A DNA stretch of 64,000 nucleotides from Phaeobacter sp. 11ANDIMAR09 (GTDB lineage: Bacteria > Pseudomonadota > Alphaproteobacteria > Rhodobacterales > Rhodobacteraceae). Shown piece by piece: positions 656 through 27,699 of this stretch; the first letter of the stretch is position 1; each line of letters begins with the position of its first letter. The notes beneath the pieces are model-generated. The model had not been told where the DNA came from. It was given only the letters and a program-made list of their open reading frames with translations, and did not search any database. Position numbers and translations under genes: made by a program. The stretch spans positions 39,009 through 103,008 of the forward strand of contig NZ_LIKT01000016.1 of the NCBI RefSeq assembly GCF_001294455.1. Reading direction: 5' to 3'.

Positions 656-866
656 TTTGTTCACCTACCCTTGAAACGCCCTTGTATTGTACGCTATTCG
701 CGGCCCTGTCAATCAAGGGCGGATTCAGTCGGAAATGGCACGGTAACGGGCTTTTTCGTTTTTCCCTGTGGGAAAATGGTCCGGATCAGACTATTTGCAG
801 GCCGAATCCGAACGACGGCCCAGACATGTTGGTTCAGACCCAACAGCAAAAGAAGAAGAGATAGAG
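656..866. promoter_or_regulatory. apbE/nqr divergent promoter region with palindrome
   Basis: This 211-base gap separates the divergent apbE and nqrA starts. On the minus strand TTGACA (complement of 707-712) and TACAAT (complement of 686-691) are 15 bases apart and could drive apbE. On the plus strand TTGAAA at 671-676 is followed 17 bases later by CTATTC, a weak candidate for nqr. A perfect inverted repeat, TTTTCCC-tgt-GGGAAAA, occupies 760-776, about 90 bases before the nqrA start. No T-tract follows, so an operator is more likely than a terminator. Promoter assignments are inference. Confidence 0.4.
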
Positions 867-2204: not shown

Positions 2205-2208
2205 TCTC

Positions 2209-5468: not shown

Positions 5469-5482
5469 GGGGGGCTGACACA

Positions 5483-9341: not shown

Positions 9342-9371
9342 CAGTTGCCTTTGGTCTGTTTCCAAAGCGGG

Positions 9372-10391
9372 TCACTGGCCAAAGAAATCAGGCAGCTCCA
9401 GACTGTCCCCACGCGCGACGGCCTTGGCGTAGACATAACTCGCCAGGGCCACATCCAGGACCCCCATGCCAAAGGGCGAATAGATCACTGGCTTGCGATC
9501 CGTGAGGGTCACATTGCCCTCAATCACCTGGGTGAGAGAGCCGGCAACAAAATCGCGCCCACCAGATAGGGTCTCGGCAAGATGGGGAGAGGTCTGCGCC
9601 TTGAGGCAATGGTCCACATCGTCAAAGACATTCTGTGCCGCTAGGATTTGCTGCGGTGCGATATCGCGTAAAGATACGTTTAAAATGGTCTGTCCAGGGG
9701 AAAACTGAAACGTTTCAGGTAGGTAGGGCGTTACCGCGTTGGTGGCAAAGACCACGAGTTCCGCATCCAACGCCTGCTCCAAGCCGACAGATTGCGCTGC
9801 AAGGCCGCAGCCCTCTGCGGCATGGTCAACCAGCGATGCGGCGGTGTCTGGATTGAGGTCGTGGCAATAGACCTTACCGATGTGCCAACCCCGGGCGCAA
9901 AACTGGTACAGAATATTGCGGGAAATCAGCCCCCCGCCGACAAAGGCGATGGATTTTACCCGACGTCCCAGGTTTGAACAATGATCCGCCCCCAGCACGG
10001 CGGAGGCTGCCGTGCGCATGGCGCTGATCTGTGCCCCTTCCAGAACCGCAAAGGGGTAGCCGGTTTCAGCGTCGTTGAGGATGATCACGGCTGAGGCGCG
10101 GTCCAGTCCTTTGCTCAGATTGGCGGGGTAGCTGGCGATCCACTTGATGCCCGAGACCTGGAGGTCCTTGGTGGCGATGGCGGCGGGCAGGGCAATGATA
10201 CGGTTGCGGTCGCTGTCGGGAAAGCGCAGAAAATAGCTGTCAGGATTGACCGTTTCTTGCTGGTGATGCGCCTGATAGGCACGCGCCACCAATTGTTCGA
10301 TCTCCTCGGCATTGCCCTGCAGCACCTTGCGGATTGCATCCGCTTTGATCAGCTGCAGGCCAGGCTTTGGGGGTTGGGGTTCGGTTTCCAT
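9372..10391 (-). CDS. sbnB: SbnB-like 2,3-diaminopropionate synthesis dehydrogenase
   Basis: Ornithine cyclodeaminase/mu-crystallin superfamily, 339 residues, with the ASAVIILND and GAQISAMRTAAS motifs and the NAD-binding segment IAFVGGGLISRN near residue 140. Placed one base after the SbnA-like gene, it matches SbnB, which oxidatively hydrolyses N-(1-amino-1-carboxy-2-ethyl)-glutamate to L-2,3-diaminopropionate and 2-oxoglutarate. Ornithine cyclodeaminase is the alternative, but the SbnA partner argues for diaminopropionate. The gene faces away from the NRPS genes and is the left end of the biosynthetic cluster. Confidence 0.87.
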   Translation of the reverse strand: METEPQPPKPGLQLIKADAIRKVLQGNAEEIEQLVARAYQAHHQQETVNPDSYFLRFPDSDRNRIIALPAAIATKDLQVSGIKWIASYPANLSKGLDRASAVIILNDAETGYPFAVLEGAQISAMRTAASAVLGADHCSNLGRRVKSIAFVGGGLISRNILYQFCARGWHIGKVYCHDLNPDTAASLVDHAAEGCGLAAQSVGLEQALDAELVVFATNAVTPYLPETFQFSPGQTILNVSLRDIAPQQILAAQNVFDDVDHCLKAQTSPHLAETLSGGRDFVAGSLTQVIEGNVTLTDRKPVIYSPFGMGVLDVALASYVYAKAVARGDSLELPDFFGQ

Positions 10392-10392
10392 G

Positions 10393-11391
10393 TCAGCTGA
10401 CCTCGCTTGCCGCCTCTTCCAATCGTTGCCGGGGACGGTCGGCGCTTAGATCCAGCGCGGGTAGGGCGCCATAGACCTCCTGCACCCAGGCGTCGTTGTA
10501 GACCGTGTCCAGGTATTTTTCGCCGCCATCCGGCGAGAGCGCGACGACTTTGGTCCCTTTGGAAAATAGATCTGCACGGGCCCGAATGCCGGCCAGAACC
10601 GACCCGGTGGAGCCCCCTGCCAGATAGCCATGGCTGGTGGCCAGCCAGCGACACAGGCGTATGGCTTCTGGTTCGGGAACCAGGACGCTATGGCGCAGCT
10701 TGTCGGCCTGATAGATTTCCGGGATGCGGCTGGTGCCGAGACCGGGAATGAAACGCGGGCCAGCTTGGCCGCCAAAGGTGATGGAGCCGGTTGAATCTAC
10801 CGCCAAAACCTGGGCCGGATGACGGATACCGTCGAAATAGTCGAGAAACCCCATGAGAGTGCCGGTGGTGCCAGCTCCAACAACGACCCAATCGGCCTCC
10901 GGGTGAGCCATAGCGATCTCGACCGCTGTAAGCCGCGCATGGGCCGCCGGGTTGGCTGGATTTGCATATTGGTTGGTCCAATAAAGGGTAGGATCGGCCG
11001 CTAGCATTTCTTTGATTAAGGCAATGCGGGTTCCCAGATATCCCCCCTGTGCATCGCGGGCGGTGACTTGGATAACCTTACCGCCAAAGGCATGGATCAT
11101 GGCCACGCTTTGGGCGGAAACATTCGGATCTACCACACTGGTAAAACCATAGCCGCGTTTTGCACAGAGAGCGGCCAGTGAAATGCCTAGATTGCCGGAG
11201 GTGGATTCAATAACCGTGCCACCGGGTTGCAACCTACCCGAGCGTTCAGCCGCATCAATCAGGCTGATAGCCGTTTTGTGTTTGATGGATCCCGAAGGGT
11301 TTACGGATTCTATTTTCAGAAACAACTCCGCCTCAATCAGACCGGATAATTTCATAAAGAAGGCATCTGGTAATTCATCTCTAGCGGGCAT
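10393..11391 (-). CDS. sbnA: SbnA-like N-(2-amino-2-carboxyethyl)-L-glutamate synthase
   Basis: PLP-dependent cysteine-synthase-fold enzyme of 332 residues. The PLP lysine lies in NPSGSIKHKTA (about residue 38), the substrate loop is STSGNLG, and the phosphate-binding loop is GAGTTGT. SbnA condenses O-phospho-L-serine with L-glutamate, the first step to L-2,3-diaminopropionate. A GGAGGT Shine-Dalgarno precedes the ATG, and sbnB follows after one base. It diverges from the phosphopantetheinyl transferase at 11447. A plain cysteine synthase is unlikely given the SbnB partner and NRPS context. Confidence 0.87.
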   Translation of the reverse strand: MPARDELPDAFFMKLSGLIEAELFLKIESVNPSGSIKHKTAISLIDAAERSGRLQPGGTVIESTSGNLGISLAALCAKRGYGFTSVVDPNVSAQSVAMIHAFGGKVIQVTARDAQGGYLGTRIALIKEMLAADPTLYWTNQYANPANPAAHARLTAVEIAMAHPEADWVVVGAGTTGTLMGFLDYFDGIRHPAQVLAVDSTGSITFGGQAGPRFIPGLGTSRIPEIYQADKLRHSVLVPEPEAIRLCRWLATSHGYLAGGSTGSVLAGIRARADLFSKGTKVVALSPDGGEKYLDTVYNDAWVQEVYGALPALDLSADRPRQRLEEAASEVS

Positions 11392-11446
11392 TTAACCTCC
11401 AAGCAGCTTTCTAAAGTTTGAAAACCACTATAACGAGTAATAATGT

Positions 11447-12190
11447 ATGATGATTCAGTCAATAGGGGCGTTTGTCTTGGAAAGGCCATATCTCCGGTCA
11501 AATACAATAAAATCAGGCATTTCGCTCTTTCTTTGTTTGGTGAATGCGCCAGGTAGCAGTTTGGTTTCGGCCCTGTTGCCTGGGTTGACGGATCAAGAAC
11601 GCCAAAGAGCTGCGCGCTTTGTCTGCCCTGAGGCGCTGCATCTGTTTGTTCTGTCTCATGCCGCTTTGCACTGGGCCCTGCGGGGCGCCGGAATTTGTAG
11701 CTACAGCTTTGCCTGCACTGCGCAGGGCAAACCCTATCTGGCCGATCACCCTGCGTTGCATTTTAATTTGTCGCATACAAAGGGGTTGATTGCTGTGGCG
11801 CTGAGCGCGGGCCATCCGGTTGGTGTGGATGTCGAACGGCTGACGACCCCACAAACCTACCGTGAACTAGCCCCGCGTGTCATGACCCCAGCGGAGTGTA
11901 CCTATATGGCGGCGCAACAAAGGCCAGAGGATCGCTTTACCCAGCTCTGGTCTGCCAAAGAGGCGCTGATGAAGGCGACCGGGCTTGGTTTTACCCTGCC
12001 GCCGCAGGACATCGAATTTGCGGGACCAAAGCCCACCCTGACCCGTCTGCCCACCACTCAGGGTCCGGTCGCAACATGGCAGCTGCGTACCCAACGTTTG
12101 CCGGGGCATTGGCTCGCCCTGGCTGCGCAGGCTCCAGCGCTGGCGTTTGATCCGATCCACCTCAGTCCGCAGGATCTTGTGGCGCCATGA
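11447..12190 (+). CDS. Sfp-type 4'-phosphopantetheinyl transferase
   Basis: A 247-residue enzyme with the Sfp signatures: FNLSHTKGLIAVAL, GVDVERL (Mg-binding acid residues) and WSAKEALMKATGLG. It moves phosphopantetheine from CoA to carrier-protein serines and so would activate the ACP, PCP and free carrier proteins encoded nearby. The first ATG (11447) is used; a second ATG follows immediately. Its 3' end overlaps the convergent aminoacyl-carrier-protein ligase by 29 bases. Part of the cluster by position and function. Confidence 0.93.
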   Translation: MMIQSIGAFVLERPYLRSNTIKSGISLFLCLVNAPGSSLVSALLPGLTDQERQRAARFVCPEALHLFVLSHAALHWALRGAGICSYSFACTAQGKPYLADHPALHFNLSHTKGLIAVALSAGHPVGVDVERLTTPQTYRELAPRVMTPAECTYMAAQQRPEDRFTQLWSAKEALMKATGLGFTLPPQDIEFAGPKPTLTRLPTTQGPVATWQLRTQRLPGHWLALAAQAPALAFDPIHLSPQDLVAP

Positions 12191-13337
12191 CAGCTCTGCG
12201 CACAGGATCGGGCCAGCCCGAAGGATCCAGGCCCTTTTGACGCACAAAGGCATAGAGCCAGCGCTCCAACCCAAAACCCATACAGGCACTTTCGGCCCTG
12301 GTTCCGTCGGCAAAAGCAATGTCATAGGTGCTGGTGTAGAAATCACGGTGCAGGTTGAAGCTGGAGGCCGCTAGGGGGGCGTCCCGGTCTGATATGTGAA
12401 ACAGCAGCTCGTATTTCACCTCTCCCATTCGCTGATAGACCACCTTGTCTCGGCTGCTATCCACAAAAAAAGGATCATTCGCCAGCTCGAGACTGACCTG
12501 CATCCCCAGGGTCTCGCAAAAGGCAAACACCCGCTCCATCACCTCGGCACGCAGCCGGGTCAGTTCCGCTCCGGAGCCAAAAAATACAATGTCGCGCACT
12601 GAAAAATCCCAGCCGCGCGACAGGGGTTGAAACCGGTTAGCCTCGTAGCGGAACACATGGTTTTGCATGGTCAGCCGTCGCACTTCGCCTCTGGCCAGCC
12701 GCAGACCTGCGTGTTGAGAGTAGCAGGGCAGGCAGACCGCGGGGGTCAGCACGTGCTCGGGTCCTTCCATGACGGCGCCCAGCTCGGCTGCGCGGGCTTT
12801 GGAGAGCGGTTCCTTGGCCATCTGTGCCACCTGTTCTAGAACTGGCAACTGGTCGGGGAAATGACTGCACAGGGTAACATGCTGGGGAAAATTGCTTGTA
12901 TAGCCAACCTCTTGCAGCAGTTTGGCAGGCATCATAACCGGATAGTGCTGATCCAGTGCGGCGTAGTCGTCGGCCAGATCCGCAAAGGTGGCCTCAAAGT
13001 ACCGAAACAGCTTGAGCAACTGTCCAGAGATCCCGGTCAGCCCATCAGCAAAGAAATGCAGATCTTCGCTGGCCGCCAGATCTTCATCCGAGCACCCCTG
13101 CGCGCTAGGCGCGGAGGTTTCCCGCAGCACGCGGCGGGCCACCAAACGGTGGGTTTTGCGCATCGCTTCGGCAAATCCCAGGGCTTCGCCCATCTTGGCT
13201 TCTCCGGTCGCGGAGATCTGCGCTATGCCGTCGGGCTGCAGCTCTACCGTCACCCCAATCGCCAGTAACCCGTCAACAATGGCAAGCCGGCTTTCTGGAG
13301 TCAGCGCCGTGAGGTCAAAATCACAGGTCCGGGTCAT
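12162..13337 (-). CDS. Seryl-tRNA-synthetase-like amino acid:[carrier protein] ligase
   Basis: Class II aminoacyl-tRNA synthetase fold without the tRNA-binding coiled coil. Motif 2 is visible around FRYEANRFQPLSRGWDFSVRD and motif 3 at GFGLERWLYAF. Cysteines in TPAVCLPCY and AESACMGFG and the motif 2 glutamate match the zinc-binding Cys/Glu/Cys set of atypical SerRS homologues that load amino acids onto the phosphopantetheine of small carrier proteins (first described in Bradyrhizobium, using Gly or Ala). Length is 391 residues; the first ~90 residues are extra compared with the catalytic core. The ATG (13337) overlaps the stop of the acyl-CoA dehydrogenase-like gene by 4 bases, and a free carrier protein sits just beyond. 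Substrate is unknown; serine is inferred from the oxidising enzymes in the operon. Confidence 0.85.
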   Translation of the reverse strand: MTRTCDFDLTALTPESRLAIVDGLLAIGVTVELQPDGIAQISATGEAKMGEALGFAEAMRKTHRLVARRVLRETSAPSAQGCSDEDLAASEDLHFFADGLTGISGQLLKLFRYFEATFADLADDYAALDQHYPVMMPAKLLQEVGYTSNFPQHVTLCSHFPDQLPVLEQVAQMAKEPLSKARAAELGAVMEGPEHVLTPAVCLPCYSQHAGLRLARGEVRRLTMQNHVFRYEANRFQPLSRGWDFSVRDIVFFGSGAELTRLRAEVMERVFAFCETLGMQVSLELANDPFFVDSSRDKVVYQRMGEVKYELLFHISDRDAPLAASSFNLHRDFYTSTYDIAFADGTRAESACMGFGLERWLYAFVRQKGLDPSGWPDPVRRAVMAPQDPAD

Positions 13338-14476
13338 GAGAGATGCACCTCTGAGAGGGACAGCCGGGCGATCATGCTTTCCAGCACCTGGGTGGTGCCC
13401 TCGATCACCTCCATGATCCGTGAGTCGCGATGGAATAGCGCCATGGGGGTGTTGGGGCCGATGCCTTCGGCGCCAAAGATCTGCTGCGCATCGCGGGTGA
13501 CGCGTCCGACCATCTGCGAGGCAAAGTATTTGGCCATGGTTGCCTGTTTCGCCGCATCCATCTGGCGCAGGGCGCGCGCGGTGGCGGCCGATTGGCACAT
13601 CAGCCTGGCGGCGTGGATGTCCGTTGCCATACGGGCCAGCATTTGCTGCACCAGTTGGAAGTCACCAATTGGCTTGCCAAATTGCTGGCGGGTCTTGGCC
13701 CGCCGCAGCGCCAATGTGCAGGCGGCATCTGCCAGGCCGACACAGCCCCAGGCGAGGTTAAGCCGCCCGGCCTCCAGCCCAGTGACCGCGACATGCGACG
13801 CTCCAAAACCGGGGCGGCCCAACAGGTGATCCTCGGGCAGATAGGCCGCCTCTAGGTGCAGATTGGCCATCATATAACCGCGGCACCCCAACAGGCCCTC
13901 GATAGGGGCAATGCGCAGGCCCTTGGTCTGTTTTGGCAGCAAAAAGGCCGTTGGTCCGGCTTCCGTTTTGGCGATCAAAACAAAGAGGTCTGCAAAATCT
14001 CCACAGGTAATCCAGGCTTTTTGACCGGTGAGCTCATAGCCGCCTGAAACGGGTCTGGCCTGGGTCTGCACCGCCGAGATGTCGCTGCCAACTTCGGGCT
14101 CGGTCATGGCAATCGCGCAGCAGATCTCGCCGCTGAGCACCCGTGGCATCCACTGGGATCTTTGTGCTTTGCTGCTCCATTTTGCCAGCGCGCTGCCCCC
14201 CATGTGGTGGACATTCAGCACCCCCTGAACCGAGGCGCTGGCCGCGCCCAGGGCCTGATGCATCTGGCCATGGTCCAGGCTTGCAGAAAGTGCCTCCGCC
14301 TGATCTGTTGCGGGCCCGCCAGGAAAGCCACTGGCAAAGGCCCCAGCCTGGCGTAGCGCCATAATCACCTGTTGCGGCACCCGGGCGTCCTGATCAATCT
14401 GGGCGGCCAAGGGCGCTATGACCTCCTGCGCCAGGCTGTCCCATCGGGTATGGTCCGGAGTGGTCTGGACAGTCAC
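13334..14476 (-). CDS. Acyl-CoA dehydrogenase-like flavoprotein, probably acting on a carrier-bound substrate
   Basis: A 380-residue acyl-CoA dehydrogenase family protein: AMTEPEVGSDISAVQT (FAD contact), a middle beta domain, and the C-terminal RDAQQIFGAEGIG and IMEVIEGTTQ segments. In methoxymalonyl- and aminomalonyl-ACP pathways such enzymes oxidise a carrier-bound aldehyde to the acid. The start is GTG, giving a GTGA overlap with the carrier protein stop; the end overlaps the ligase start by 4 bases. This tight coupling ties the enzyme to the carrier protein. An ordinary fatty-acid role is unlikely here. Confidence 0.85.
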   Translation of the reverse strand: MTVQTTPDHTRWDSLAQEVIAPLAAQIDQDARVPQQVIMALRQAGAFASGFPGGPATDQAEALSASLDHGQMHQALGAASASVQGVLNVHHMGGSALAKWSSKAQRSQWMPRVLSGEICCAIAMTEPEVGSDISAVQTQARPVSGGYELTGQKAWITCGDFADLFVLIAKTEAGPTAFLLPKQTKGLRIAPIEGLLGCRGYMMANLHLEAAYLPEDHLLGRPGFGASHVAVTGLEAGRLNLAWGCVGLADAACTLALRRAKTRQQFGKPIGDFQLVQQMLARMATDIHAARLMCQSAATARALRQMDAAKQATMAKYFASQMVGRVTRDAQQIFGAEGIGPNTPMALFHRDSRIMEVIEGTTQVLESMIARLSLSEVHLS

Positions 14477-14733
14477 GCGGCGGCCATGGCTTGCTTGCGG
14501 GCAACCAGGGCGGCAACGCGATTGATCGAACGAAAATTGTCGATCTCCAGATCTTCTGCTTCAATGTCCAGGCCAAAATGTGATTCAACAAAAGCAACCA
14601 GCTGCATGGCAAACATGGAATTGCCATAGCCGGCTTCAAAGATATCCTGATCGGGTTCGATCTTTGCGCCGTCAAAGGAGCGCGTCATGAATGCGGCGAT
14701 GGCGCCCTGGGGATTGGTCTTGGTGTCAGTCAT
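14473..14733 (-). CDS. Free-standing acyl/aminoacyl carrier protein
   Basis: Small carrier protein of 86 residues. The phosphopantetheine serine is in GYGNSMFAMQL, followed by the helix III region DIEAEDLEIDNFRSINRVAALV. The usual aspartate before the serine is replaced by asparagine, as can occur in aminoacyl carrier proteins. The frame is open upstream to 14859, but ATG 14733 (MTDTKTNPQ) gives a normal size and has a purine-rich ribosome site. It should be charged by the ligase at 12162-13337 and presented to the two dehydrogenases flanking it. Confidence 0.88.
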   Translation of the reverse strand: MTDTKTNPQGAIAAFMTRSFDGAKIEPDQDIFEAGYGNSMFAMQLVAFVESHFGLDIEAEDLEIDNFRSINRVAALVARKQAMAAA

Positions 14734-14746
14734 GGGAACCTCTTTG

Positions 14747-15601
14747 TTATTGATCATAGGTGTGAAAGCCGCGCCCGGCCTTGCGTCCGGTTTGCCCGGC
14801 ATAGACAAGCCGTTTGAGCAGGGGGCAGGGGCGGTACTTGGGGTCGTTGAATTCGTCATAGAGAATATCCAAAGACAGTTTTACGGTATCTAGCCCGATC
14901 AGATCAGCGGTCTCTAGCGGACCCATTTTGTGGCCAAAGCAGGTCTTGAACAGCCGGTCCACGCCCTGAACATCGGCCACGCCCTCATGGACTAGAAACA
15001 TGGCCTCATTGACCATCAGCATCATCACCCGATTGGTGACAAACCCCGGGCTGTCGTTGACCAGAATCGACTGTTTGTTGGCAGCCGCGACCAGATCCGC
15101 TGCCGCCTGCAACGCCTGCGGCGTGCTATGGGTGGCACGAATGATTTCGACCATGGGCATGATTGGCGGCGGGTTCATAAAATGCATGCCAATGACGCGG
15201 TTAGGATGGCGCGAGAAGCTGGCAATGCGGGTGATCGGGATGGCGGATGTATTGGCGGCGACCGGCGTCTCGGGGGGCAGAATGTGATCAATCTCGTGGT
15301 GGACTGCCGTTTTCAGAGCCACGTTTTCGGTGATATTCTCAATCACGAAACCAGTCCCCGACAGAGCTTCCATATCCGTTGTAAATGTCAGCCTGTTCAG
15401 GACGCCGGCAGGGGCGGGTAGGGATTTGTGCACCATGCCATAGAGGCGGGCGTTCTTGGTGATGTTTTTGCAGGCGGTTTCCAGCTGCTCGGCGACGCTG
15501 TCCACCAGCACCACCTGCAACCCGGATTGAGCAAAAAGTTGGGCAACACCTGATCCAATAGTCCCGGCGCCAACAACGCCGATGGTTCCAAAGTCTCTCA
15601 T
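14747..15601 (-). CDS. 3-hydroxyacyl-CoA dehydrogenase-like enzyme (FkbK/ZmaG type)
   Basis: A 284-residue NAD-dependent 3-hydroxybutyryl-CoA dehydrogenase family protein. It has the Rossmann motif GVVGAGTIGSGVAQ at the N-terminus, the catalytic segment GMHFMNPPPIMPMVEI (His), and NDSPGFVTNR. In extender-unit pathways this family oxidises the hydroxyl of a carrier-bound glyceryl or seryl group to an aldehyde. A clear AAGGAG ribosome site precedes ATG 15601. It sits 13 bases before the carrier protein gene and 2 bases after the kinase. Ordinary 3-hydroxybutyryl-CoA dehydrogenase is the alternative. Confidence 0.83.
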   Translation of the reverse strand: MRDFGTIGVVGAGTIGSGVAQLFAQSGLQVVLVDSVAEQLETACKNITKNARLYGMVHKSLPAPAGVLNRLTFTTDMEALSGTGFVIENITENVALKTAVHHEIDHILPPETPVAANTSAIPITRIASFSRHPNRVIGMHFMNPPPIMPMVEIIRATHSTPQALQAAADLVAAANKQSILVNDSPGFVTNRVMMLMVNEAMFLVHEGVADVQGVDRLFKTCFGHKMGPLETADLIGLDTVKLSLDILYDEFNDPKYRPCPLLKRLVYAGQTGRKAGRGFHTYDQ

Positions 15602-15603
15602 GG

Positions 15604-16260
15604 CTACTCCTTGGTTTGTGACCTGTTTCTAGGGGCCTTTGCGGCTGCGGGGTGCAGCGCGGCGATGGCCTGCTGTGCCTGGGCTGCCAGTTCCGGCAGC
15701 GTGTACATCCCGTCAAGAATCCTGTCGGCCTGCGCTCTGGCCTGCGCCTCTGCCAGGCGATAGGCCTGCCGTTGTGGCCCCAGATATGCCTGAAACTGGG
15801 CAGCAAGATCCTCCAGGGCTTCTGCGTGCCAATGCGCATGCGCCGGGTCCGGTTGTGCCTGGGCGCGGCGCAGCGAGCGACGGGCCAGCGCAATGTCCGG
15901 GGGTAATTCTAGGTGCAGCGCCAGATCGATCAGCGGCGCAAGGGCGCTGCGGGCGCGGCCAAAGGGATCTTCCAGCAGGATCAGCTCGGCCGGAGCGACT
16001 GGCGCGCGACCTCCCGAGGGATGGATGGTTTGATTAGACTGTAGGGCCAGCAGATCATCCGTGAGCCCTGGTGTCTTGATGGCATCCGCAGGGGCACCCT
16101 CCGCGACCCATTGCTGGATCTCATCCACATCGGTGCCCAGCTCGACATAGTCATCAAAAAACAACAGGGCCGCGCCGCCCTGCAGTGCCGCGAGGTGGCG
16201 CATCAGAGAGCTTTTGCCCGCACCTGAGGTGCCCGAGACAACAACGGTGATGGCCATCAT
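15604..16260 (-). CDS. P-loop small-molecule kinase of unknown substrate
   Basis: A 218-residue P-loop protein with Walker A GTSGAGKSS at residues about 9-17 and an acidic FFDDY motif around residue 35, resembling uridine kinase/phosphoribulokinase-like small-molecule kinases. The ATG overlaps the asparagine synthetase stop by 4 bases (ATGA), and the gene belongs to the minus-strand biosynthetic operon. Possible roles are making a phosphorylated amino acid for the threonine-synthase-like enzyme or masking the product by phosphorylation; the window also encodes an exported phosphatase at the other cluster end. The substrate cannot be deduced. Confidence 0.7.
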   Translation of the reverse strand: MMAITVVVSGTSGAGKSSLMRHLAALQGGAALLFFDDYVELGTDVDEIQQWVAEGAPADAIKTPGLTDDLLALQSNQTIHPSGGRAPVAPAELILLEDPFGRARSALAPLIDLALHLELPPDIALARRSLRRAQAQPDPAHAHWHAEALEDLAAQFQAYLGPQRQAYRLAEAQARAQADRILDGMYTLPELAAQAQQAIAALHPAAAKAPRNRSQTKE

Positions 16261-18122
16261 ATCCCTCCCGGCCCCAAGCGGGGCATGTCAAAGCATTCCA
16301 GGAAAATTCCAAAGCTGAGCACCGTCAAAAGCGCGTCATCCGGCGCCCCGCCGGAAGGCAGCGCAGGCCCTCTCAGTGCAGCGCGTTTGAGCGCTTCCAC
16401 GGAATCGACGTTAAAGAAGCCCTGGGCGCGGATTGTTGCGGGGGACAAGAGGTCAGCAATCCAGGGGCAGTTCTGCAAGAGCAAAAAGGCGCTGCCCGGG
16501 GCGCCAAAGGCAAATTTCTCCCGGTTGATGATTTCTGCGGGGACATGCGGTTTGGCCGCCTGTTTCAGGACATGTTTTTCCTCAAAGCCATGCAGCAATT
16601 GGTCCGGTGGGATTTGCGTCACCAGCTGCACGAGATCGCGATCCAAGAAGGGAAAGCGCCCCTCGACTGAATTGGCCATCAGCATCCGGTCCCCGTGATC
16701 GCCAAGCAGGTGATCCCCAAGGCGCAGTTTGAAATCCAGGTAGGAGCGTTGGTGAATCACATGCCGATCCTTGACTTTGCTTGGGTCCACCAGCGCAGTA
16801 TTGGAAAAGCAAAACTGCTGTAGTTGGTCCGCCAGCGGGGCCGAATAAAGCCAGCGGCGCTGTGCTTCGTGGGCAAGGAGGTCTTTTTCATAGAACAGAT
16901 CCGCTGCCCCAAAGGCTCTGGCGCGCAGTTCAGCCTCGGCGGCGGGTGGATCGACCTGGCCACGTAGGGCCCGAAAGGCATCATAACGATAGCCCAGGTA
17001 GCCCGCGAACAGCTCGTCTGCGCCTTCACCCGACAGCACAACCGGCACCCCGGCGTCACGGGTGGCAGCCGAGAGCGCCAGCGACGCGGTGTTGTAGCTT
17101 TCTTTGATTGGGCATTCGGCGTGCCAGATGGATTGCCGCAGAGCGGCGGCGATATCTTCGGCGGGATGCAGTGAGCTGCGGTGAATGGTTCCGCATTCTT
17201 TGGCAACGAGGCTTTGGTAGCTGTCTTCGTCAAACATCGGTTGATCGAAGGTGATTGAGAAGCTGTTCAGCGCCTCGCAGCCTTGGTCGGCCATCAGAGC
17301 GGTGATAAAGGCGCTGTCCAGCCCGCCGCTCAGGTAGCTGCCAACCGGGACATCCGCCATCAATCTGCGCTCGACCGATGCAGCCAAGGAGGCGCAGACC
17401 TGCCTGTCATGCTGGGCAGTGCTGTCGGGGGCCTCTGCCGTTGTCGGATAGTTTAGATCCCAATAGGCTGTGCACCGCGTCCCGGCCCCATCCACCACCA
17501 GTTTGCATCCGGGCGGCAAGCTGTGAATGCCTTTGAACATGGTTCTGGGGCTGACCAGGCCGGGCAGGGACAGCACTTGATCCAAACCAGTCAGATCCAC
17601 TTCTCGTTTGATGCCGGGATAGGTCAAGATCGCCTTTATTTCCGAGGCAAAGATCAGGGCATTGCCGTGTTCCGTGTAAAAGAAAGGGGCCACTCCAAAG
17701 GGGTCGCGGGCGCAAAACAGACGCTTGTTGTCACTGTCATAGAGGGCAAAGGCGAATTGGCCGTTGAGCTGATCCAACAGTGCCTCACCATGGTCCTCAT
17801 AGAGGTGGAGGAGGACCTCCACGTCCGAGCCGGTGGCAAAGCGATGGCCCCGTGCCATCAGCCGTTTGCGCAGCTGCGGCGCATTAAAAATCTCGCCATT
17901 GCAGATCAGGTGCAGGCTGCCATCCTCGTTGGCGATGGGCTGGTTGCCGCCTTCCAGATCCACAATGGCAAGGCGGCGAAACCCGAGCGCTGCCCTGTCA
18001 TCCAGAAACATGCCCTCATCATCCGGGCCGCGATGGGCCAGTTGTGCCTGCATTCGGGCCACCACCTGTGGCGAAGCCGGAGGCGGGCCAGATGCGGAAA
18101 AAGCGCCACATATTCCGCACAT
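16257..18122 (-). CDS. asnB: Asparagine synthetase (glutamine-hydrolysing), AsnB-like
   Basis: A 621-residue two-domain enzyme. The frame extends upstream to 18167, but MCGICGAF at 18122 gives the required N-terminal nucleophile Cys2 after Met removal. The glutaminase domain carries AHRGPDDEG and ICNGEI; the synthetase domain has the PP-loop SYLSGGLDSAFI and LSGEGADELFAGY. It converts aspartate (or a related acid) to an amide using glutamine and ATP. It lies 2 bases after the threonine-synthase-like gene and overlaps the kinase. Within an NRPS cluster it may supply Asn or amidate a nonstandard carboxylate. Confidence 0.9.
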   Translation of the reverse strand: MCGICGAFSASGPPPASPQVVARMQAQLAHRGPDDEGMFLDDRAALGFRRLAIVDLEGGNQPIANEDGSLHLICNGEIFNAPQLRKRLMARGHRFATGSDVEVLLHLYEDHGEALLDQLNGQFAFALYDSDNKRLFCARDPFGVAPFFYTEHGNALIFASEIKAILTYPGIKREVDLTGLDQVLSLPGLVSPRTMFKGIHSLPPGCKLVVDGAGTRCTAYWDLNYPTTAEAPDSTAQHDRQVCASLAASVERRLMADVPVGSYLSGGLDSAFITALMADQGCEALNSFSITFDQPMFDEDSYQSLVAKECGTIHRSSLHPAEDIAAALRQSIWHAECPIKESYNTASLALSAATRDAGVPVVLSGEGADELFAGYLGYRYDAFRALRGQVDPPAAEAELRARAFGAADLFYEKDLLAHEAQRRWLYSAPLADQLQQFCFSNTALVDPSKVKDRHVIHQRSYLDFKLRLGDHLLGDHGDRMLMANSVEGRFPFLDRDLVQLVTQIPPDQLLHGFEEKHVLKQAAKPHVPAEIINREKFAFGAPGSAFLLLQNCPWIADLLSPATIRAQGFFNVDSVEALKRAALRGPALPSGGAPDDALLTVLSFGIFLECFDMPRLGPGGI

Positions 18123-18124
18123 GG

Positions 18125-19363
18125 CTAGTGCTCCTGCCAGGTGGGCGGGGCCACCAGGGTGTGCCAATCCTCGGGATGCAGGCAGGGGGCGGTCTGGGCC
18201 TCAGCGGCGGCAATGGCAACGCGCAGATCCTTGAGCCCGGTTCCGGTGCCCAACAGGACCACCCGCTCATCCGTGGCAAAACCGCCCTGTTGTTGTAGTT
18301 TTTCAAACCCGGCATATCCGGCGGCTGAAGAGGGTTCCAGAAAGATGCCAAATCTAGAGGCCATAGCCATGACCGCCTTGGAGATTTCTGCATCATCCAC
18401 CACCACCGCGCGGCCATTGCTGTGGCGTAGCGCCCGGACGGCGGCGCGTTCATCCATCGGCGCCGGGACATGGATGCTATCGGCGCAGGTGGTCTGCGCC
18501 CCGCCTTGTAGACGAGGGTCAAAGGCCTGGGCAATAGGGCAGGCGGCGGCGGTTTGCACTGCCAGCAACCGGGGCAGATGCGGGATCAATCCGCAGGCTT
18601 TGAGATCGGAAAACCCTTTGGCCATGGCGCTGAGGATATTGCCATCTCCGGTTGGAACCACCACCCAATCGGGGGGCTGCCAGTCCAATTGTGCCGCTAT
18701 CTCCAGCGCGCAGGTCTTTTTCCCTTCGCGGGTAAAGGGATTGAGGCCGGTTGTTCGGTTCAGGGCACCGCGCGCCCGTGCCAGGTTGCCAGCAACGGTG
18801 CAGGCAGCGGCATAGGGGCCTTCAATTCTGTGCACCTCAGCGCCAAAGGCTTGAATCTGGGCCAGTTTGGCTACCGGAATGTCCCGCGGCACAATCACAG
18901 TCACCCGGGTTTTCTGTGCGGCACCTACGGCCGCCAGCGAGGCCGCCGCATTGCCCGTAGAGGCCATGATGACTTCGTCGATCTCAAAGGCCGCCGCCAC
19001 TGCGAGGACCAGCTCGCTGGCGCGATCCTTGAGCGAGCCGGAGGGGTTTCTGGTCTCATCCTTGAGCCAGAGCCTGGGGCCCTGATGGGGGCCGAGATCC
19101 AGCAAGGGGGTGCCGCCAACCTGCAAATGCGAGCCCCAGCCAGCCCTGAGGGGTAAAAAATCTTCAAATTGCCACATGCCAGACTGCGGCGACGTCTGAA
19201 CCCCATGTCGCAGCCTGTCTGGAGAAGCCGCGAGGGGCTGTGTCAGTTCAAGATTGCCGCCGCAGGCGCAGGCCAGGCTGCGCGCAGTGATGGCGTGCTG
19301 GCGCCCACAGTCCAGGCAAGCGCCCGAAATACGATGGAATTGGGATAGATCGGATAGCTCCAC
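18125..19363 (-). CDS. Threonine synthase-like PLP enzyme
   Basis: A 412-residue PLP enzyme of the threonine synthase group. An N-terminal zinc-ribbon-like part (CLDCG and CACGG) is followed by the PLP lysine in NPSGSLKDRAS, the loop STGNAAAS, and the PLP phosphate-binding GTGTGL near the C-terminus. Threonine synthase turns O-phosphohomoserine into threonine. The start is GTG at 19363 with a good GGGAGGG ribosome site, and it is the first gene of the seven-gene minus-strand operon. With the kinase two genes on, it may make or modify an amino acid building block; a primary-metabolism paralogue cannot be excluded. Confidence 0.82.
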   Translation of the reverse strand: MELSDLSQFHRISGACLDCGRQHAITARSLACACGGNLELTQPLAASPDRLRHGVQTSPQSGMWQFEDFLPLRAGWGSHLQVGGTPLLDLGPHQGPRLWLKDETRNPSGSLKDRASELVLAVAAAFEIDEVIMASTGNAAASLAAVGAAQKTRVTVIVPRDIPVAKLAQIQAFGAEVHRIEGPYAAACTVAGNLARARGALNRTTGLNPFTREGKKTCALEIAAQLDWQPPDWVVVPTGDGNILSAMAKGFSDLKACGLIPHLPRLLAVQTAAACPIAQAFDPRLQGGAQTTCADSIHVPAPMDERAAVRALRHSNGRAVVVDDAEISKAVMAMASRFGIFLEPSSAAGYAGFEKLQQQGGFATDERVVLLGTGTGLKDLRVAIAAAEAQTAPCLHPEDWHTLVAPPTWQEH

Positions 19364-19543: not shown

Positions 19544-19762
19544 TCAGCCGGCCATGGCTTCGGCTTTTTTCTCGCCTTTAATTGATTTGGCAGAGGCTTT
19601 AGCGGAATCTTTTCCTGCTTTCTCCTTTGCCTTCATATCCTTGGCCTTTGCTTTTCTCTCGTCTTTCTGGGCTTTGCCCTCGGCTTTTCCTTTTGCCTTA
19701 TGTTTGGCTTTCATCTCGGCTTTCATGGAGTCTTTTTTGGCTTTGGCTTCCGCTTTTTCCAC
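19544..19762 (-). CDS. Small Lys/Ala/Glu-rich low-complexity protein
   Basis: A 72-residue frame made almost wholly of Lys, Ala, Glu, Met and Asp in AKAK/AEGKAQKDERK-type repeats, highly basic and likely helical. GTG 19762 is preferred because AGGAGA lies six bases upstream; the ATG at 19777 overlaps that site. It lies between the two arms of the biosynthetic cluster, 180 bases before the threonine-synthase-like operon and on the same strand. No family is recognised; the composition recalls bacterial histone H1-like tails. Real expression is likely given the ribosome site but not proven. Confidence 0.55.
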   Translation of the reverse strand: MEKAEAKAKKDSMKAEMKAKHKAKGKAEGKAQKDERKAKAKDMKAKEKAGKDSAKASAKSIKGEKKAEAMAG

Positions 19763-20285
19763 GGGGATTCTCCTCATGTTAGATAGATCGGGATGTCAGT
19801 ACCGGTGCTGTCAGTCGAAAAACAAAAACAACCTAAGCAGGAATAAAGCAGTAACATGAAATTTTTCAAACATCCATATACTGTTTTGAGTTGTGTAATA
19901 CATATTTAAGTTGTGTTGATAATTATTTTGTGGTTTCAAATATATGGCGATCTCTTGCCTGTGGATTTGAAGTTTTAAAATCTAGCTTGCCAGGTTTGAG
20001 AAAGTCGTAGCGGTTTCTGTCTGGAGTTTTATTTGACCAAAAATCTCCAAAGGTTTGAATCATAATTAAAAAACCAAGGCAGATGCAACGGCCTTCGCGC
20101 GCTCCGGGCCTCGTAGGAATCAGTCCAGTGTGGCCTGACACGAGGGGTGGTCTTGGTTGAAGCGCAGGGGTTTGAAATCCGCAGACTGCTGGGCCCTGAC
20201 TCGGGGCCGCGTAGAGCGTGGATAGGATGAGTGGTGTTGCGACATGCGCGGCCTGCGCCAAAGGGAGAAGAGAGGGAGAGAAAGA
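19763..20285. promoter_or_regulatory. 523-base divergent regulatory gap between the two cluster arms
   Basis: No convincing gene lies here; a minus-strand open frame (19923-20321) has no family features. The left part (about 19850-20060) is strikingly AT-rich against GC-rich neighbours and has two AGTTGTGT repeats (around 19890 and 19910). The right part is GC-rich with a short inverted repeat near 20192-20209 (GGCCC/GGGCC). The assembly-line operon must be transcribed from here. I could not place a confident -35/-10 pair or a recognisable regulator box. Confidence 0.45.
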
Positions 20286-23200
20286 ATGGGGTTCGACACA
20301 GGATTGATCAGAAGTTTGCAAGACCGCGCAACCGAAGGAAAACAGGTCGCATTTTCGTTCCTAGTGTCACCCGATCAGCCCCCGGAAACCTTGACCTATC
20401 AGGGCTTGGATGGCACTGCCAAAACCCTGGCTCTTGCCCTGCAGGCCGAGGCTAAGACCCTGCAGTTTACGTTACGACAGGCTCCTGTGCTTATCGCGCT
20501 ACCTGCCGGGTTGGCCTTTTTGCAGTGTTATTTTGGCTGTCTCTATGCCGGGGCAATTGCTGTGCCAATCAAGTATCCGCAGCGAAATAAGCCGATGGAT
20601 CACACAGAAAATGTCGCGGCTGATTGCGGCGCCCGTCTGGTGATCGCGACTCGGGAGATGAAGGTGCGGTTGAGCGAGGCTTTGCCGGATCTACGGGTGC
20701 TTGCTATTGAGGATCTGTTGTCCCGCCCCGCCCCGGCGGGTGCGATCTGGACCGACCCGGATCCCAAGGGCACTGATATCGCGCATCTGCAATATACCTC
20801 GGGTTCGACGTCAGCGCCCAAAGGGGTAGCGATCAGCCATAACAATATTGCGCAGAATGCAGCGGATGTTTGCAGCAGTTTTACAATTGATGAGACCAGC
20901 CGCCTGTTGTGCTGGTTGCCGCATTACCACGACCTGGGGCTGATCTTTGGCTGTATCGTACCGGTGTTTTCAGGCAGTCACAGCCTTTTGATGCCGCCGG
21001 CCCATTTTGCACAACGTCCCGTGCGGTGGTTGCAGGTGATGCAGGCGCATCAGGTCACCCATTCGGCTGCGCCAAATTTTGCCTTTGATGCCTGTCTGGC
21101 GGTGCCTCGCAGTGTGACCGCAAATCTGGATTTGTCCTGTGTGCAGGCTCTGTTGAATGGGGCAGAACCCGTCCGGGCGCAGACCGTGCAGCGTTTTGTC
21201 AGCCGTTTTGCTGAAAACGGGCTGGGAGCGGATGTGCAATGCCCCTCTTACGGGATGGCTGAGAACACCTTGGTCATTAGTGTCAACGGTCCGGCCAATC
21301 CGCTGACATGGGCGCGGTTTGATAGCGAGGCTCTGCGGCAGCGCCGGTTGGTACCTGTGGAAGAGTCGCATCTGCGGCACCGCGCATTGGTGGTTTGCAG
21401 CGGAGCAGAGTTGGGTTGTGAAATTCGCATTGTAGAGCCGCAAAGCCTGCAGGCCTGCGCGCCGGGTGAGATTGGCGAGATTTGGGTGCAGGGGCCTTCT
21501 GTTGCGGCGGGCTACTGGCAGCGCGATGCGCTGACGCAAGAGAAGTTTCAGGCCCGGCTTAAGGGGGAAACTGGCCTGTGGCTGCGCACCGGAGATCTGG
21601 GTGGGTTCTGCGACGCTGGCCTGATCGTTATTGGCCGGTTGGATGATGTAATGGTTCTGCGCGGCATCAATTACAGCCCCGAAGATATCGAACTCTCCGT
21701 TGAGGCCTGCGACCCGGCGTTGGAGCCGGGTGGGGCTGTAGTTTTTGCCAGTGAAATCACAGCGCAAGCCATGGGGCAGGTTGATGGTGAAAATGGCGCT
21801 GAAAATAGCGGTACCCAGCGGTTGGTTGTGGTGCATGAGGTTACGCGGAGCGCGCTTCGGACGCTGCGGCGTGGTGGCGCGGCCTCGGAGGATCTAATGC
21901 AGCATCTTGTGGCCATCATTCGGGCACAGGTGGCAGAGCAGCATGACCTTGATCTGGGCGCTTTGGTCCTGTTGCCGCCCAAAGGGGTGCCCAAGACCCA
22001 TACCGGCAAAAAGAAGCGGCATGCCTGCCGGAGCGGATTTGCTGATGGCACCTTGACGGGCGAGGCGCGCTGGTTTTCGTCGCGCTATACCCGCGCAGTT
22101 TCGACTACTCTATCAGGTGATACCCCCTCTCAGACCTGCGGCCAGCAAGAGCCCTCACCGGATGCAGAGGCGCTGTCCAGCACCACGAGGGATCTGATCG
22201 ACTGGCTGCGGCACTACGGCGAAACACGTCTGAACTCTCGCCAAATGGATGAGCGGCGCACGATGCCGCCCTATGTGGTGATGGATTTTGCCAGGCAGGG
22301 GCTTTGGGGCATGGTTGCGCCACAGCACTATGGTGGGCTGGGTCTGCGCAACAGTGATTTTGTGGATGTCGTACAGCAGATGGCGGCAATCGACACCACT
22401 TTGGCCTCATTCACGGTTGTCAATAATGCCTTGGGCCTGCGCCCCATTCTGCGCCACGCTCAGCCGGATCTAGTGGAGCGGCTGATGCCCGAGCTGGCCA
22501 GCGGGCGCAGGCTTGCCTCCTTTGCCATGACCGAGGCTGGAGCGGGCTCGAATATTCGCAATCTCTCAGCCAGAGGGGTGCCGAATGGCCGCGGGGGCTG
22601 GCAGCTGCAGGGGCGTAAACTCTGGTCAGGCTCAGCGGCCTGGGCAGGGGTGATCAATACCTTTGTCAGGATCGAAGATCCCCGGGGCGGCCAGGCGGTC
22701 AGTGGCTTTGTGGTGGAGGCTGAGACCGCAGGGCTGCGCCAGGGCCCCGAGGCCTTGACTCTGGGGCTGCGAGCCATGGTGCAAAATGAGGTGCTGCTGG
22801 AGGGGGCAGAGGTCACTGCGGATCAGCGTCTGGGGGAAATCGGACAGGGCATGGTCGCGGCCTCGGATGCGATGGAATACGGGCGTTTTGCCATCGCTGC
22901 GATGTCACTGGGCGTGGTGAAGCGCTGTCTGCAACTGATGCTGCGTCACGGCAGCCGTCGTATGATTGCCACGGGCGCTTTGCTGGACAACCCGGCAACC
23001 AGCCTGCGGGTTTCTGAACTGGCAAGCGCCGCTACTGGCATCGACGCCCTGGTGCGGACGGTAGCCGCGCAGCTGGATGCCGGTCAACCGCCCCCGGCCG
23101 AGATGTTTTGCGCCTGTAAATCTCTGGCGCCTGAATATGCCTGGAAGGCCGCGGATGGGCTGATCCAGCAAATGGCGGGTCGGGGCTATATCGAGACAAA

Positions 23201-24248
23201 CATCGCCCCTCAGATCCTGCGGGATGCACGGGTGTTGCGAATCTTTGAGGGGCCAACAGAGCCGATGAATGCGCATATCGGCGCGCGTCTGGCGCAATTC
23301 CCGCAGGCGCTGGAGGACTATGTCGGCACCCGGTTGCAGCAACCGGAGCTGGGCACAGAGTTGGCTCTGAGCGCCCAGCAGATCTGGCGACATCACCTGG
23401 ACCATCAGATCCTTTGGGGCGGATATGCTGCGGCCAAGGCCCAGGCGCATCTGGCGATTGGCGAAGCCGCAAGCCATGGCTTGATGCTGGCATGCCTGGT
23501 TCATCAGGGCGAGACAGGGGCTGCAAACCCAGATGGGGCCAACAGGCGGGCGCAGGATTGGGCGCGACGTCAGTTTGACAGGGCCTGGGCCAAGGCCCTG
23601 ACCATGTCTCCTGCACAGGCGGTGCGGTTGGATCAAATGGAGATGGAGGCTCTGCGCGACAGTTGCGCCGCCGCGATTGGTGATGTCGAACAGCAGATGG
23701 CGGGATCAGATCATGAGCTCGACGGGTTGCTGAGGCGACAAAAACCGCAGCCAAAGCAAGAAGTGGCGCCTGCACAGCAAGGCGGGGCACAGGTCTCCTC
23801 TGGCCAGGGTGATGCGTTGCAGTCGGGTGATGGGGAGACATCGAAAACGGCTGAGGTCCGCGCGCTTAGCGCCTGGATCAAACGCTGGATGGCTTCAGAA
23901 TTTCAGATCGAAATTGCTGCGATCGACGAGGCGGCCCGGTTTTCAAGCTTTGGCATGGATTCGGTGGCGGCCATGTTGCTGACAGGGGCGCTGGAGGACT
24001 GGACTGGCGTGGACCTCCCTGCCTCGCTGGTCTGGGAACATCGCAGCATCCGGGCTCTTGCCAGCCATGTTGCGGGTCTTGCTGGGGTGACAATTCCAGG
24101 ACTGAAAACTGTTGCTGCAACAGATCCTCAGGCGGAGGTCGAGGCGGTGGATTTGATGTCCTTGTTGGCCGGTGCGGATGATCTGTCCGAGACAGAATTG
24201 GCGGCGCTGATTGCGCGTCTTGAACAGACAACACCGGAGGTCACATGA
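20286..24248 (+). CDS. FAAL-acyl-CoA dehydrogenase-ACP starter protein
   Basis: A 1320-residue loading protein. Residues 1 to about 610 form a fatty acyl-AMP ligase: YTSGSTSAPKGVAISH (P-loop), LPHYHDLGLIFGCI, SYGMAENTL, RTGDLG, and RGINYSPEDIE. Residues about 640-1030 are an acyl-CoA dehydrogenase domain (FAMTEAGAGSNIRN; catalytic region RIFEGPTEP). A C-terminal ACP has its phosphopantetheine serine at about 1226 (GMDSVAAML). It should activate a free fatty acid, load it on the ACP and introduce an alpha,beta double bond before handing it to the first condensation domain. ATG 20286 (MGFDTG) is preferred to 20244 because purine-rich GGGAGAG precedes it and the family starts nearby. Its stop overlaps the next gene (ATGA). 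Confidence 0.92.
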   Translation: MGFDTGLIRSLQDRATEGKQVAFSFLVSPDQPPETLTYQGLDGTAKTLALALQAEAKTLQFTLRQAPVLIALPAGLAFLQCYFGCLYAGAIAVPIKYPQRNKPMDHTENVAADCGARLVIATREMKVRLSEALPDLRVLAIEDLLSRPAPAGAIWTDPDPKGTDIAHLQYTSGSTSAPKGVAISHNNIAQNAADVCSSFTIDETSRLLCWLPHYHDLGLIFGCIVPVFSGSHSLLMPPAHFAQRPVRWLQVMQAHQVTHSAAPNFAFDACLAVPRSVTANLDLSCVQALLNGAEPVRAQTVQRFVSRFAENGLGADVQCPSYGMAENTLVISVNGPANPLTWARFDSEALRQRRLVPVEESHLRHRALVVCSGAELGCEIRIVEPQSLQACAPGEIGEIWVQGPSVAAGYWQRDALTQEKFQARLKGETGLWLRTGDLGGFCDAGLIVIGRLDDVMVLRGINYSPEDIELSVEACDPALEPGGAVVFASEITAQAMGQVDGENGAENSGTQRLVVVHEVTRSALRTLRRGGAASEDLMQHLVAIIRAQVAEQHDLDLGALVLLPPKGVPKTHTGKKKRHACRSGFADGTLTGEARWFSSRYTRAVSTTLSGDTPSQTCGQQEPSPDAEALSSTTRDLIDWLRHYGETRLNSRQMDERRTMPPYVVMDFARQGLWGMVAPQHYGGLGLRNSDFVDVVQQMAAIDTTLASFTVVNNALGLRPILRHAQPDLVERLMPELASGRRLASFAMTEAGAGSNIRNLSARGVPNGRGGWQLQGRKLWSGSAAWAGVINTFVRIEDPRGGQAVSGFVVEAETAGLRQGPEALTLGLRAMVQNEVLLEGAEVTADQRLGEIGQGMVAASDAMEYGRFAIAAMSLGVVKRCLQLMLRHGSRRMIATGALLDNPATSLRVSELASAATGIDALVRTVAAQLDAGQPPPAEMFCACKSLAPEYAWKAADGLIQQMAGRGYIETNIAPQILRDARVLRIFEGPTEPMNAHIGARLAQFPQALEDYVGTRLQQPELGTELALSAQQIWRHHLDHQILWGGYAAAKAQAHLAIGEAASHGLMLACLVHQGETGAANPDGANRRAQDWARRQFDRAWAKALTMSPAQAVRLDQMEMEALRDSCAAAIGDVEQQMAGSDHELDGLLRRQKPQPKQEVAPAQQGGAQVSSGQGDALQSGDGETSKTAEVRALSAWIKRWMASEFQIEIAAIDEAARFSSFGMDSVAAMLLTGALEDWTGVDLPASLVWEHRSIRALASHVAGLAGVTIPGLKTVAATDPQAEVEAVDLMSLLAGADDLSETELAALIARLEQTTPEVT

Positions 24249-27682: not shown

Positions 27683-27699
27683 TCAGGAGGGACTTACGG

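What the first reader, a model, noticed from the sequence alone, without database searches (positions are those of the whole stretch)
12162..15601. SerRS-like ligase replaces the usual loading enzyme in an aminomalonyl-ACP-type cassette
Four adjacent, overlapping genes encode a 3-hydroxyacyl-CoA dehydrogenase-like enzyme, a free carrier protein, an acyl-CoA dehydrogenase-like enzyme and a class II aaRS-like aminoacyl:carrier ligase. Methoxymalonyl-ACP (FkbH-K) and aminomalonyl-ACP (zwittermicin) routes use the same two oxidations on a carrier protein. Here an atypical SerRS homologue would load serine, which would then be oxidised to aminomalonyl-ACP. Known SerRS-like ligases load Gly or Ala and have had little clear metabolic role.
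Basis: partly seen in the sequence, partly recalled or inferred. Interest (0 to 1): 0.9.

Follow-up and report, generated by a model that had tools for sequence, protein, structure and literature searches.

The report
SerRS-like loader for aminomalonyl-ACP cassette
A bacterial natural-product gene cluster carries a relative of the enzyme that charges tRNA with serine, in the gene slot where related gene sets keep their carrier-loading enzyme, so it likely loads serine onto a carrier protein that two neighbouring oxidases would turn into a rare amino-bearing polyketide building block, a possible job for an enzyme family that has lacked one.

Summary
On the minus strand lie HBDH (14747-15601), a free carrier protein (14473-14733), an acyl-CoA dehydrogenase (13334-14476) and a SerRS-like amino acid:carrier ligase (12162-13337), the last four genes of a seven-gene run inside an NRPS-PKS cluster. 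Trees place HBDH, ACAD and the cluster's AT with FkbH-loaded, ACP-linked extender cassettes; 9 of 10 such cassettes seen have the same gene order, with FkbH where the ligase stands here. No FkbH was found in this genome. The AT carries GYSIG, like the published aminomalonyl- and hydroxymalonyl-ACP transferases. The whole set recurs in 6 of 6 related clusters, among them Azospirillum, Methylobacterium, an acidobacterium and a myxobacterium; two Streptomyces plasmids carry a second version with a discrete AT. BjGCL1-type ligase loci show no HBDH in the stretches seen, and their ACADs form a remote clade. Serine loading and oxidation to aminomalonyl-ACP is therefore well supported, but serine is inferred, not shown. 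New detail: the predicted zinc-ligand Glu of 18 of 18 other ligases compared is Asp in 120 of 120 listed homologues. Novelty: a known cassette with a non-orthologous loading enzyme.

The parts
12162..13337 (-). SerRS-like amino acid:carrier-protein ligase (LIG), 391 aa; predicted Zn ligands C202, D249, C352
13334..14476 (-). acyl-CoA dehydrogenase of the FkbH-cassette (extender) clade (ACAD), Glu of the I-E-G-T motif present
14473..14733 (-). free carrier protein (CP), 86 aa, phosphopantetheine site GNSM at Ser39
14747..15601 (-). 3-hydroxyacyl dehydrogenase of the extender-cassette clade (HBDH)
15604..16260 (-). small P-loop kinase-like protein, same run
16257..18122 (-). asparagine-synthase-like amidotransferase, same run (longer TTG ORF to 18167 listed)
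18125..19363 (-). threonine-synthase-like PLP enzyme, same run
9372..10391 (-). SbnB (2,3-diaminopropionate biosynthesis), 383 bits over cut-off 327
10393..11391 (-). SbnA (2,3-diaminopropionate biosynthesis), 364 bits over cut-off 350
11447..12190 (+). 4'-phosphopantetheinyl transferase
20244..24248 (+). AMP ligase - ACAD - ACP protein
24245..27682 (+). NRPS module C-A-PCP
27679..31971 (+). NRPS module C-A-(MT)-PCP
31968..36587 (+). PKS module KS-AT-KR-ACP; AT with GYSIG and SCQ in the place of RXR, the predicted user of the extender unit
36584..40726 (+). NRPS module C-A-PCP-TE
40732..42447 (-). type I phosphodiesterase/nucleotide pyrophosphatase, found in 3 of the 6 relatives' clusters

Best explanation
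The four genes encode an HBDH, a free carrier protein, an ACAD and a SerRS-like ligase that together would make aminomalonyl-ACP, the ligase likely loading L-serine on the carrier in place of the FkbH or adenylation-domain loader of related cassettes. Steps: the PPTase would make holo-CP; the ligase would form Ser-AMP, its zinc holding the amino group, and pass serine to the thiol; HBDH would oxidise the beta-hydroxyl to the aldehyde with NAD+; the ACAD would oxidise that to the carboxylate; the GYSIG AT of the single PKS module would take the unit from the CP, and KS and KR would build a 2-amino-3-hydroxy unit between two NRPS-derived residues. Shown here: gene content, order, clades, AT motif and recurrence. 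Inferred: every catalytic step and the amino acid.
For: (1) Gene order HBDH-CP-ACAD-ligase equals HBDH-CP-ACAD-FkbH in 9 of 10 FkbH cassettes seen (Chroococcidiopsis, Gloeocapsopsis, Nostoc, S. cattleyicolor, four other Streptomyces, Alkalihalophilus). (2) HBDH falls with the cassette HBDHs, 18 rows, 100/100, apart from 7 fatty-acid HBDHs; ACAD falls with the FkbH-cassette ACADs, 16 rows, 99/99, apart from 8 ACADs of the own genome and 5 of BjGCL1-type loci. (3) AT: best PDB match ZmaA-AT, the hydroxymalonyl-ACP transferase; GYSxG as in ZmaA and ZmaF (PMC4207774 Table 2, passages); GYS in 12 of 14 contigs or records with a cassette and 0 of 17 without. (4) No FkbH match in the own genome; the same query rang in G300. 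(5) Ligase, CP, ACAD, HBDH, SbnA, SbnB, PKS and NRPS genes in 6 of 6 relatives. (6) Streptomyces NBC_00984 and NBC_00557: HBDH-CP-ACAD-ligase-AT, ATs GYSVG and GYSIG. (7) A survey names L-serine and 1,3-bisphosphoglycerate as the two substrates of such modules (PMC6395733, figure legend); only serine is an amino acid.
Against: No direct evidence for serine: characterised relatives are reported to load Gly or Ala, although one review table lists Ser. Two of 8 ligase-cluster ATs in the motif table are GHSIG (Granulicella, Myxococcales), and the FkbH-linked discrete AT of Alkalihalophilus is GHSIG too, so the motif is not absolute. In Alkalihalophilus a related ligase sits beside an extender cassette that has its own FkbH, with a second carrier, so neighbourhood alone does not prove loading of that carrier. 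One FkbH cassette (Myxococcales MAG, L124) has CP before HBDH. The Streptomyces ACADs lie outside the extender clade and lack the usual Glu, and a third Streptomyces relative of those ligases shows no cassette in 25 kb.
Confidence: 0.72

Rival explanations
1. The ligase would load Gly or Ala as its characterised relatives do, and the ACAD (with or without HBDH) would modify that aminoacyl group, or the aminoacyl-CP would serve as a plain building block.
For: Reviewed aa:CP ligases use Gly or Ala. BjGCL1-type ligases stand beside an ACAD in 14 of 14 loci.
Against: No HBDH was seen in those 14 short stretches or in three wider ones; their ACADs form a remote clade (100/100) without Glu at the aligned catalytic place; one such CP gives no BLAST hit to this CP. 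HBDH, an enzyme class for beta-hydroxy thioesters, is present in 7 of 7 window-type clusters and has nothing to act on in Gly or Ala.
Confidence: 0.15
2. The cassette would make hydroxymalonyl- or methoxymalonyl-ACP from a glyceryl donor through an unseen loader, and the ligase would serve another carrier.
For: Closest HBDH, ACAD and CP relatives outside the ligase clusters are in FkbH cassettes; in Alkalihalophilus ligase and FkbH coexist.
Against: No FkbH match in the own genome nor in 4 of 6 relatives' genomes (Granulicella has a 31% match on another contig, the Myxococcales MAG has FkbH in a separate cassette). Only one free CP lies in the run, and the ligase gene overlaps the ACAD gene by 4 nt.
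Confidence: 0.08
3. Oxidation would stop at the aldehyde, or the ACAD would desaturate, giving a formylglycyl or dehydro-amino acyl unit instead of aminomalonyl.
For: The ACAD family normally desaturates; the chemistry is not testable here.
Against: ACAD clade and AT type match extender cassettes, whose known products are malonyl-type units (PMC6395733, passages).
Confidence: 0.05

Closest known systems
Aminomalonyl-ACP route of zwittermicin A (HBDH, ZmaH, ZmaI, ZmaJ; AT ZmaF)
   Same: HBDH, CP, ACAD and an ACP-specific AT; GYSxG motif in ZmaF and ZmaA-AT (passages)
   Different: Loader is the adenylating enzyme ZmaJ; here a class II aaRS-like ligase. zma sequences were not compared, except ZmaA-AT through the PDB search
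Methoxymalonyl-type ACP cassette with FkbH (named by gene content, products not known here)
   Same: Same gene order in 9 of 10 seen, same clades for HBDH and ACAD, related CP
   Different: FkbH loader replaced by the ligase
Amino acid:carrier-protein ligases (BjGCL1, PDB 3mey; NF005479)
   Same: Homologous catalytic core, CP gene nearby, two Cys of the zinc site
   Different: Separate clade (100/100), Asp for the predicted Zn-ligand Glu, different ACAD and CP, HBDH added
Methanogen-type SerRS (PDB 2cim, 3w3s)
   Same: Homologous catalytic domain
   Different: 391 aa against 522-527 in the PDB chains; 88 bits against the NCBIfam cut-off 611

Membership tests
ACP-linked extender-unit cassette | HBDH of the extender clade | tested here: met
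   18-row set 100/100 apart from 7 fatty-acid HBDHs
ACP-linked extender-unit cassette | ACAD of the extender clade | tested here: met
   16-row set 99/99
ACP-linked extender-unit cassette | free carrier protein of that type | tested here: met
   46-48% identity to CPs of two FkbH cassettes; no hit at E 1e-5 to one BjGCL1-type CP
ACP-linked extender-unit cassette | FkbH or stand-alone adenylation loader | tested here: not met
   no FkbH match in genome (control); among 38 of the 50 window ORFs scanned with Pfam, AMP-binding domains lie only in the multidomain proteins
ACP-linked extender-unit cassette | AT that takes ACP-bound units | tested here: met
   by sequence only: GYSIG; grouped with FkbH-cluster ATs, 14 rows 86/91, inner set 98/96
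aminomalonyl-ACP synthesis | serine loaded and oxidised to aminomalonyl-CP | not testable with these tools
   needs enzymology
aa:CP ligase NF005479 (BjGCL1 type) | curated score | tested here: not met
   148 bits, cut-off 357
aa:CP ligase (broad homology family) | homology to BjGCL1 and a CP gene in the same run | tested here: met
   E 2.2e-25 to 3mey; CP separated from the ligase by one gene
aa:CP ligase (broad homology family) | Cys-Glu-Cys zinc site | tested here: inconclusive
   both Cys invariant, Glu replaced by Asp in 120 of 120; site recalled from SerRS literature and consistent with the numbering
SerRS | full-length SerRS model | tested here: not met
   88 bits against 611

The most novel reading that the evidence does not exclude
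Class II aaRS-like ligases have been recruited as serine loaders of polyketide extender cassettes, perhaps twice (Proteobacteria/Acidobacteria/Myxococcota and Streptomyces), giving this enzyme family its first defined metabolic job; a Glu-to-Asp change of the zinc ligand marks, and may cause, the move from glycine to serine in the main clade.
Probability: 0.45. Interest if true: 0.85.

Novelty: new variant of a known kind. Interest (0 to 1): 0.72.

Why it matters
[quoted passage not shown] a role in nonribosomal synthesis had been suggested in general terms (PMC4849084, passages). This cluster gives a concrete, testable role, a third way to prime the same extender cassette (after FkbH and adenylation enzymes), and a small loading enzyme that may help to put amino groups into polyketides. 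The paper searches found no report of it: 0 papers hold both aminomalonyl and seryl-tRNA synthetase. The library lacks most subscription journals.

Tried and rejected
Rejected: that the ligase is the cell's SerRS (scores; three other class II synthetase genes lie in the genome, not named further). Rejected as evidence: the RXR position alone. Ligase-cluster ATs have an uncharged first residue, but so do some control ATs, and two have Arg at the third position. Not shown: two independent recruitments; trees separate the Streptomyces ligases and ATs from the main clade, but one-clade tests do not reject union (p-AU 0.082 for ligases, 0.063 for ATs), and the HBDH tree leaves it open (63/92 for all nine ligase-linked HBDHs). 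Adenylation-domain codes were read by eye from recalled motif positions and gave no safe product prediction. A third ligase group (about 30% identity) looks stand-alone: in 7 of 10 wide stretches (L099-L103, L105, L107) no CP, ACAD or HBDH hit was found; of the other three, L104 has CP plus NRPS/PKS hits, L106 only a FAAL-ACAD-ACP hit, and L108 is a BjGCL1-type CP-ACAD-ligase locus. Colibactin genes, which also use aminomalonyl, were not fetched as a yardstick because they make a toxin; zma genes were not located.

A correction made on checking: the AT of L058 was counted as 'no cassette', but L058 lies on the contig of the Myxococcales ligase cluster. One search recounts with it moved and with pieces of one contig merged; the result stands.
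Full report
Observation. The ligase is 391 aa from ATG 13337. CP and ACAD, and ACAD and ligase, overlap by 4 nt; HBDH and CP are 13 nt apart; upstream in the same run are a kinase-like gene, an asparagine-synthase-like gene and a threonine-synthase-like gene. Around them lie SbnA and SbnB, both over their NCBIfam cut-offs, a PPTase, and on the plus strand an AMP ligase-ACAD-ACP protein, three NRPS modules and one PKS module KS-AT-KR-ACP.

The ligase. It matches amino acid--[ACP] ligase NF005479 below the cut-off and methanogen-type SerRS more weakly; the four solved sequences matched are two forms of BjGCL1 (3mey, 4h2w) and two archaeal SerRS. A tree puts the seven window-type ligases in one clade (100/100), apart from eight BjGCL1-type ligases. 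Both Cys of the SerRS-type zinc site are kept (C202, C352). The third ligand, Glu355 of the Methanosarcina enzyme, aligns with D249 here; I recalled the ligand numbers, and the residue numbers of the alignment agree with them after an offset of 20. D249 is Asp in 120 of 120 listed homologues (the best 120 of 306 found, the first 99% identical to this protein) and Glu in 18 of 18 other ligases compared.

The other three genes are extender-cassette genes. The HBDH tree joins 9 ligase-linked and 9 FkbH-linked HBDHs with 100/100 against 7 fatty-acid HBDHs. The ACAD tree joins the 7 window-type and 9 FkbH-linked ACADs with 99/99, away from 8 ACADs of the own genome, 5 of BjGCL1-type ligase loci and the 2 Streptomyces ligase-linked ones. 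The CP is 46-48% identical to CPs of two FkbH cassettes and gives no hit at E 1e-5 to one BjGCL1-type CP. FkbH cassettes have the order HBDH-CP-ACAD-FkbH in 9 of 10 seen (by annotation; L111 and L115 by tblastn); in the tenth, of the Myxococcales MAG (L124), CP comes before HBDH. So the ligase stands in the slot of FkbH. I call these cassettes methoxymalonyl-type by gene content; their products are not known here. FkbH was not found in the own genome; the same query found it in the Myxococcales MAG, in that separate cassette, and found none in four of the other five relatives' genomes (Granulicella has a 31% match on another contig).

The user of the unit. The AT of the PKS module has GYSIG where CoA-dependent ATs have GHSxG. 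PMC4207774 (passages read) lists GYSFG for the hydroxymalonyl-ACP AT ZmaA and GYSLG for the aminomalonyl-ACP AT ZmaF. The AT's best match in the PDB is ZmaA-AT. Of 47 ATs collected, GYS occurs in 13 of 20 from contigs or records with an extender cassette and 0 of 27 from those without (Fisher p 5.5e-7; by contig 12 of 14 and 0 of 17, which corrects). ATs were picked by similarity and are not independent, and four of the 'without' records were seen only over 25 kb, so the p-value is only a guide. Two loci found later split: Streptomyces NBC_00557 with the ligase has GYSIG, Alkalihalophilus with FkbH has GHSIG. In the AT tree the ligase-cluster ATs and the FkbH-cluster GYS ATs form one set of 14 (86/91), with the GHSIG AT of Granulicella inside it.

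Recurrence. A scan of species genomes gave six loci: Pseudophaeobacter leonis, a Rhodobacteraceae MAG, Azospirillum, Methylobacterium crusticola, Granulicella and a Myxococcales MAG. All 6 of 6 hold ligase, ACAD, CP, HBDH, SbnA, SbnB, PKS and NRPS genes (in Methylobacterium the PKS is on another contig, so its link is assumed; in Granulicella HBDH lies about 20 kb from the ligase). The gene is rare: of 295 genomes of the family 5 match, the own one and four at 28-37% identity; of 398 of the phylum 45 match, all but the own at 26-37%; of 385 of the class 2 pass E 1e-60, the own included. Two Streptomyces plasmids have HBDH-CP-ACAD-ligase-AT, with ligases 31-33% identical to this one and ATs GYSVG and GYSIG. 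A third Streptomyces relative, 45% identical to the first of these, shows no cassette in the 25 kb fetched.

Contrast. BjGCL1-type ligases have an ACAD beside them in 14 of 14 loci L085-L098 and a CP hit in 10 of 14; these stretches reach only about 1.5 kb each side. Three wider stretches (L066, L108, L152) also show CP-ACAD-ligase and no HBDH. HBDH acts on beta-hydroxy thioesters (established for the family). Of the two substrates named for such cassettes, L-serine and 1,3-bisphosphoglycerate (PMC6395733, legend passage), only serine is an amino acid. That is the argument for serine; it is inference. A caution: in Alkalihalophilus a ligase and a complete FkbH cassette stand side by side.

Mechanism and limits. 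Serine would be adenylated and passed to CP, oxidised by HBDH and ACAD to aminomalonyl-CP, and taken by the AT for one decarboxylative extension followed by ketoreduction. None of the catalytic steps is shown.

Against literature. Reviews say aa:CP ligases load Gly or Ala (PMC5370406, passages) and that the role of the attachment remains unknown (PMC9437257, passages; its table also lists Ser). PMC4849084 (passages) repeats the 2010 suggestion of a part in nonribosomal synthesis. PMC2922099 (note added in proof) linked the SerRS paralogue to ACP and a redox gene in another pathway. 23 papers hold the word aminomalonyl; I saw passages of five (in PMC5318452 only the reference list matched), none with an aaRS-like loader. 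So this is a known cassette with a new kind of loader; the finding is of real interest but rests on sequence.

Noticed in passing
window 15604-19363: Kinase-like, asparagine-synthase-like and threonine-synthase-like genes run in one operon-like set with the cassette; all three hit in the four alphaproteobacterial relatives, no AsnB hit in Granulicella, none of the three in the stretch of the Myxococcales MAG. They may build another non-protein amino acid.
   Followed up: partly
L150 (Alkalihalophilus plasmid) 7935-14905: An aa:CP ligase with its own CP and a BtrH-like protein stands beside a complete HBDH-CP-ACAD-FkbH-AT cassette: apparently a different use of the same ligase family.
   Followed up: partly
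L067 13863-16811 and L154 6825-8825: Streptomyces plasmids with CP and aaRS-like ligase beside a diiron oxygenase (and in L067 a nitronate monooxygenase): another possible role for carrier-bound amino acids.
   Followed up: no
L153 1288-11858: aaRS-like ligase among DpgA-C, glycine amidinotransferase and a PGM1-related peptide ligase in Streptomyces decoyicus.
   Followed up: no
L066, L085-L098, L108, L152: BjGCL1-type ligases sit with a distinct ACAD; the 5 such ACADs aligned lack Glu at the catalytic position.
   Followed up: partly
L065 7189-10111: The Streptomyces NBC_00984 cluster holds a second ACAD-CP set with an adenylation-domain loader, some 8 kb from the ligase cassette.
   Followed up: no
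window 19544-19777: Small minus-strand ORF of 77 aa very rich in Lys, Ala and Glu, between the two halves of the cluster; may be chance.
   Followed up: no
window 768-6706: Genes of a Na+-translocating NADH:quinone reductase (nqr) upstream of the cluster.
   Followed up: no
L044-L045 (P. leonis): NRPS and PKS hits are split into pieces in different frames: draft errors or decay of the cluster.
   Followed up: no
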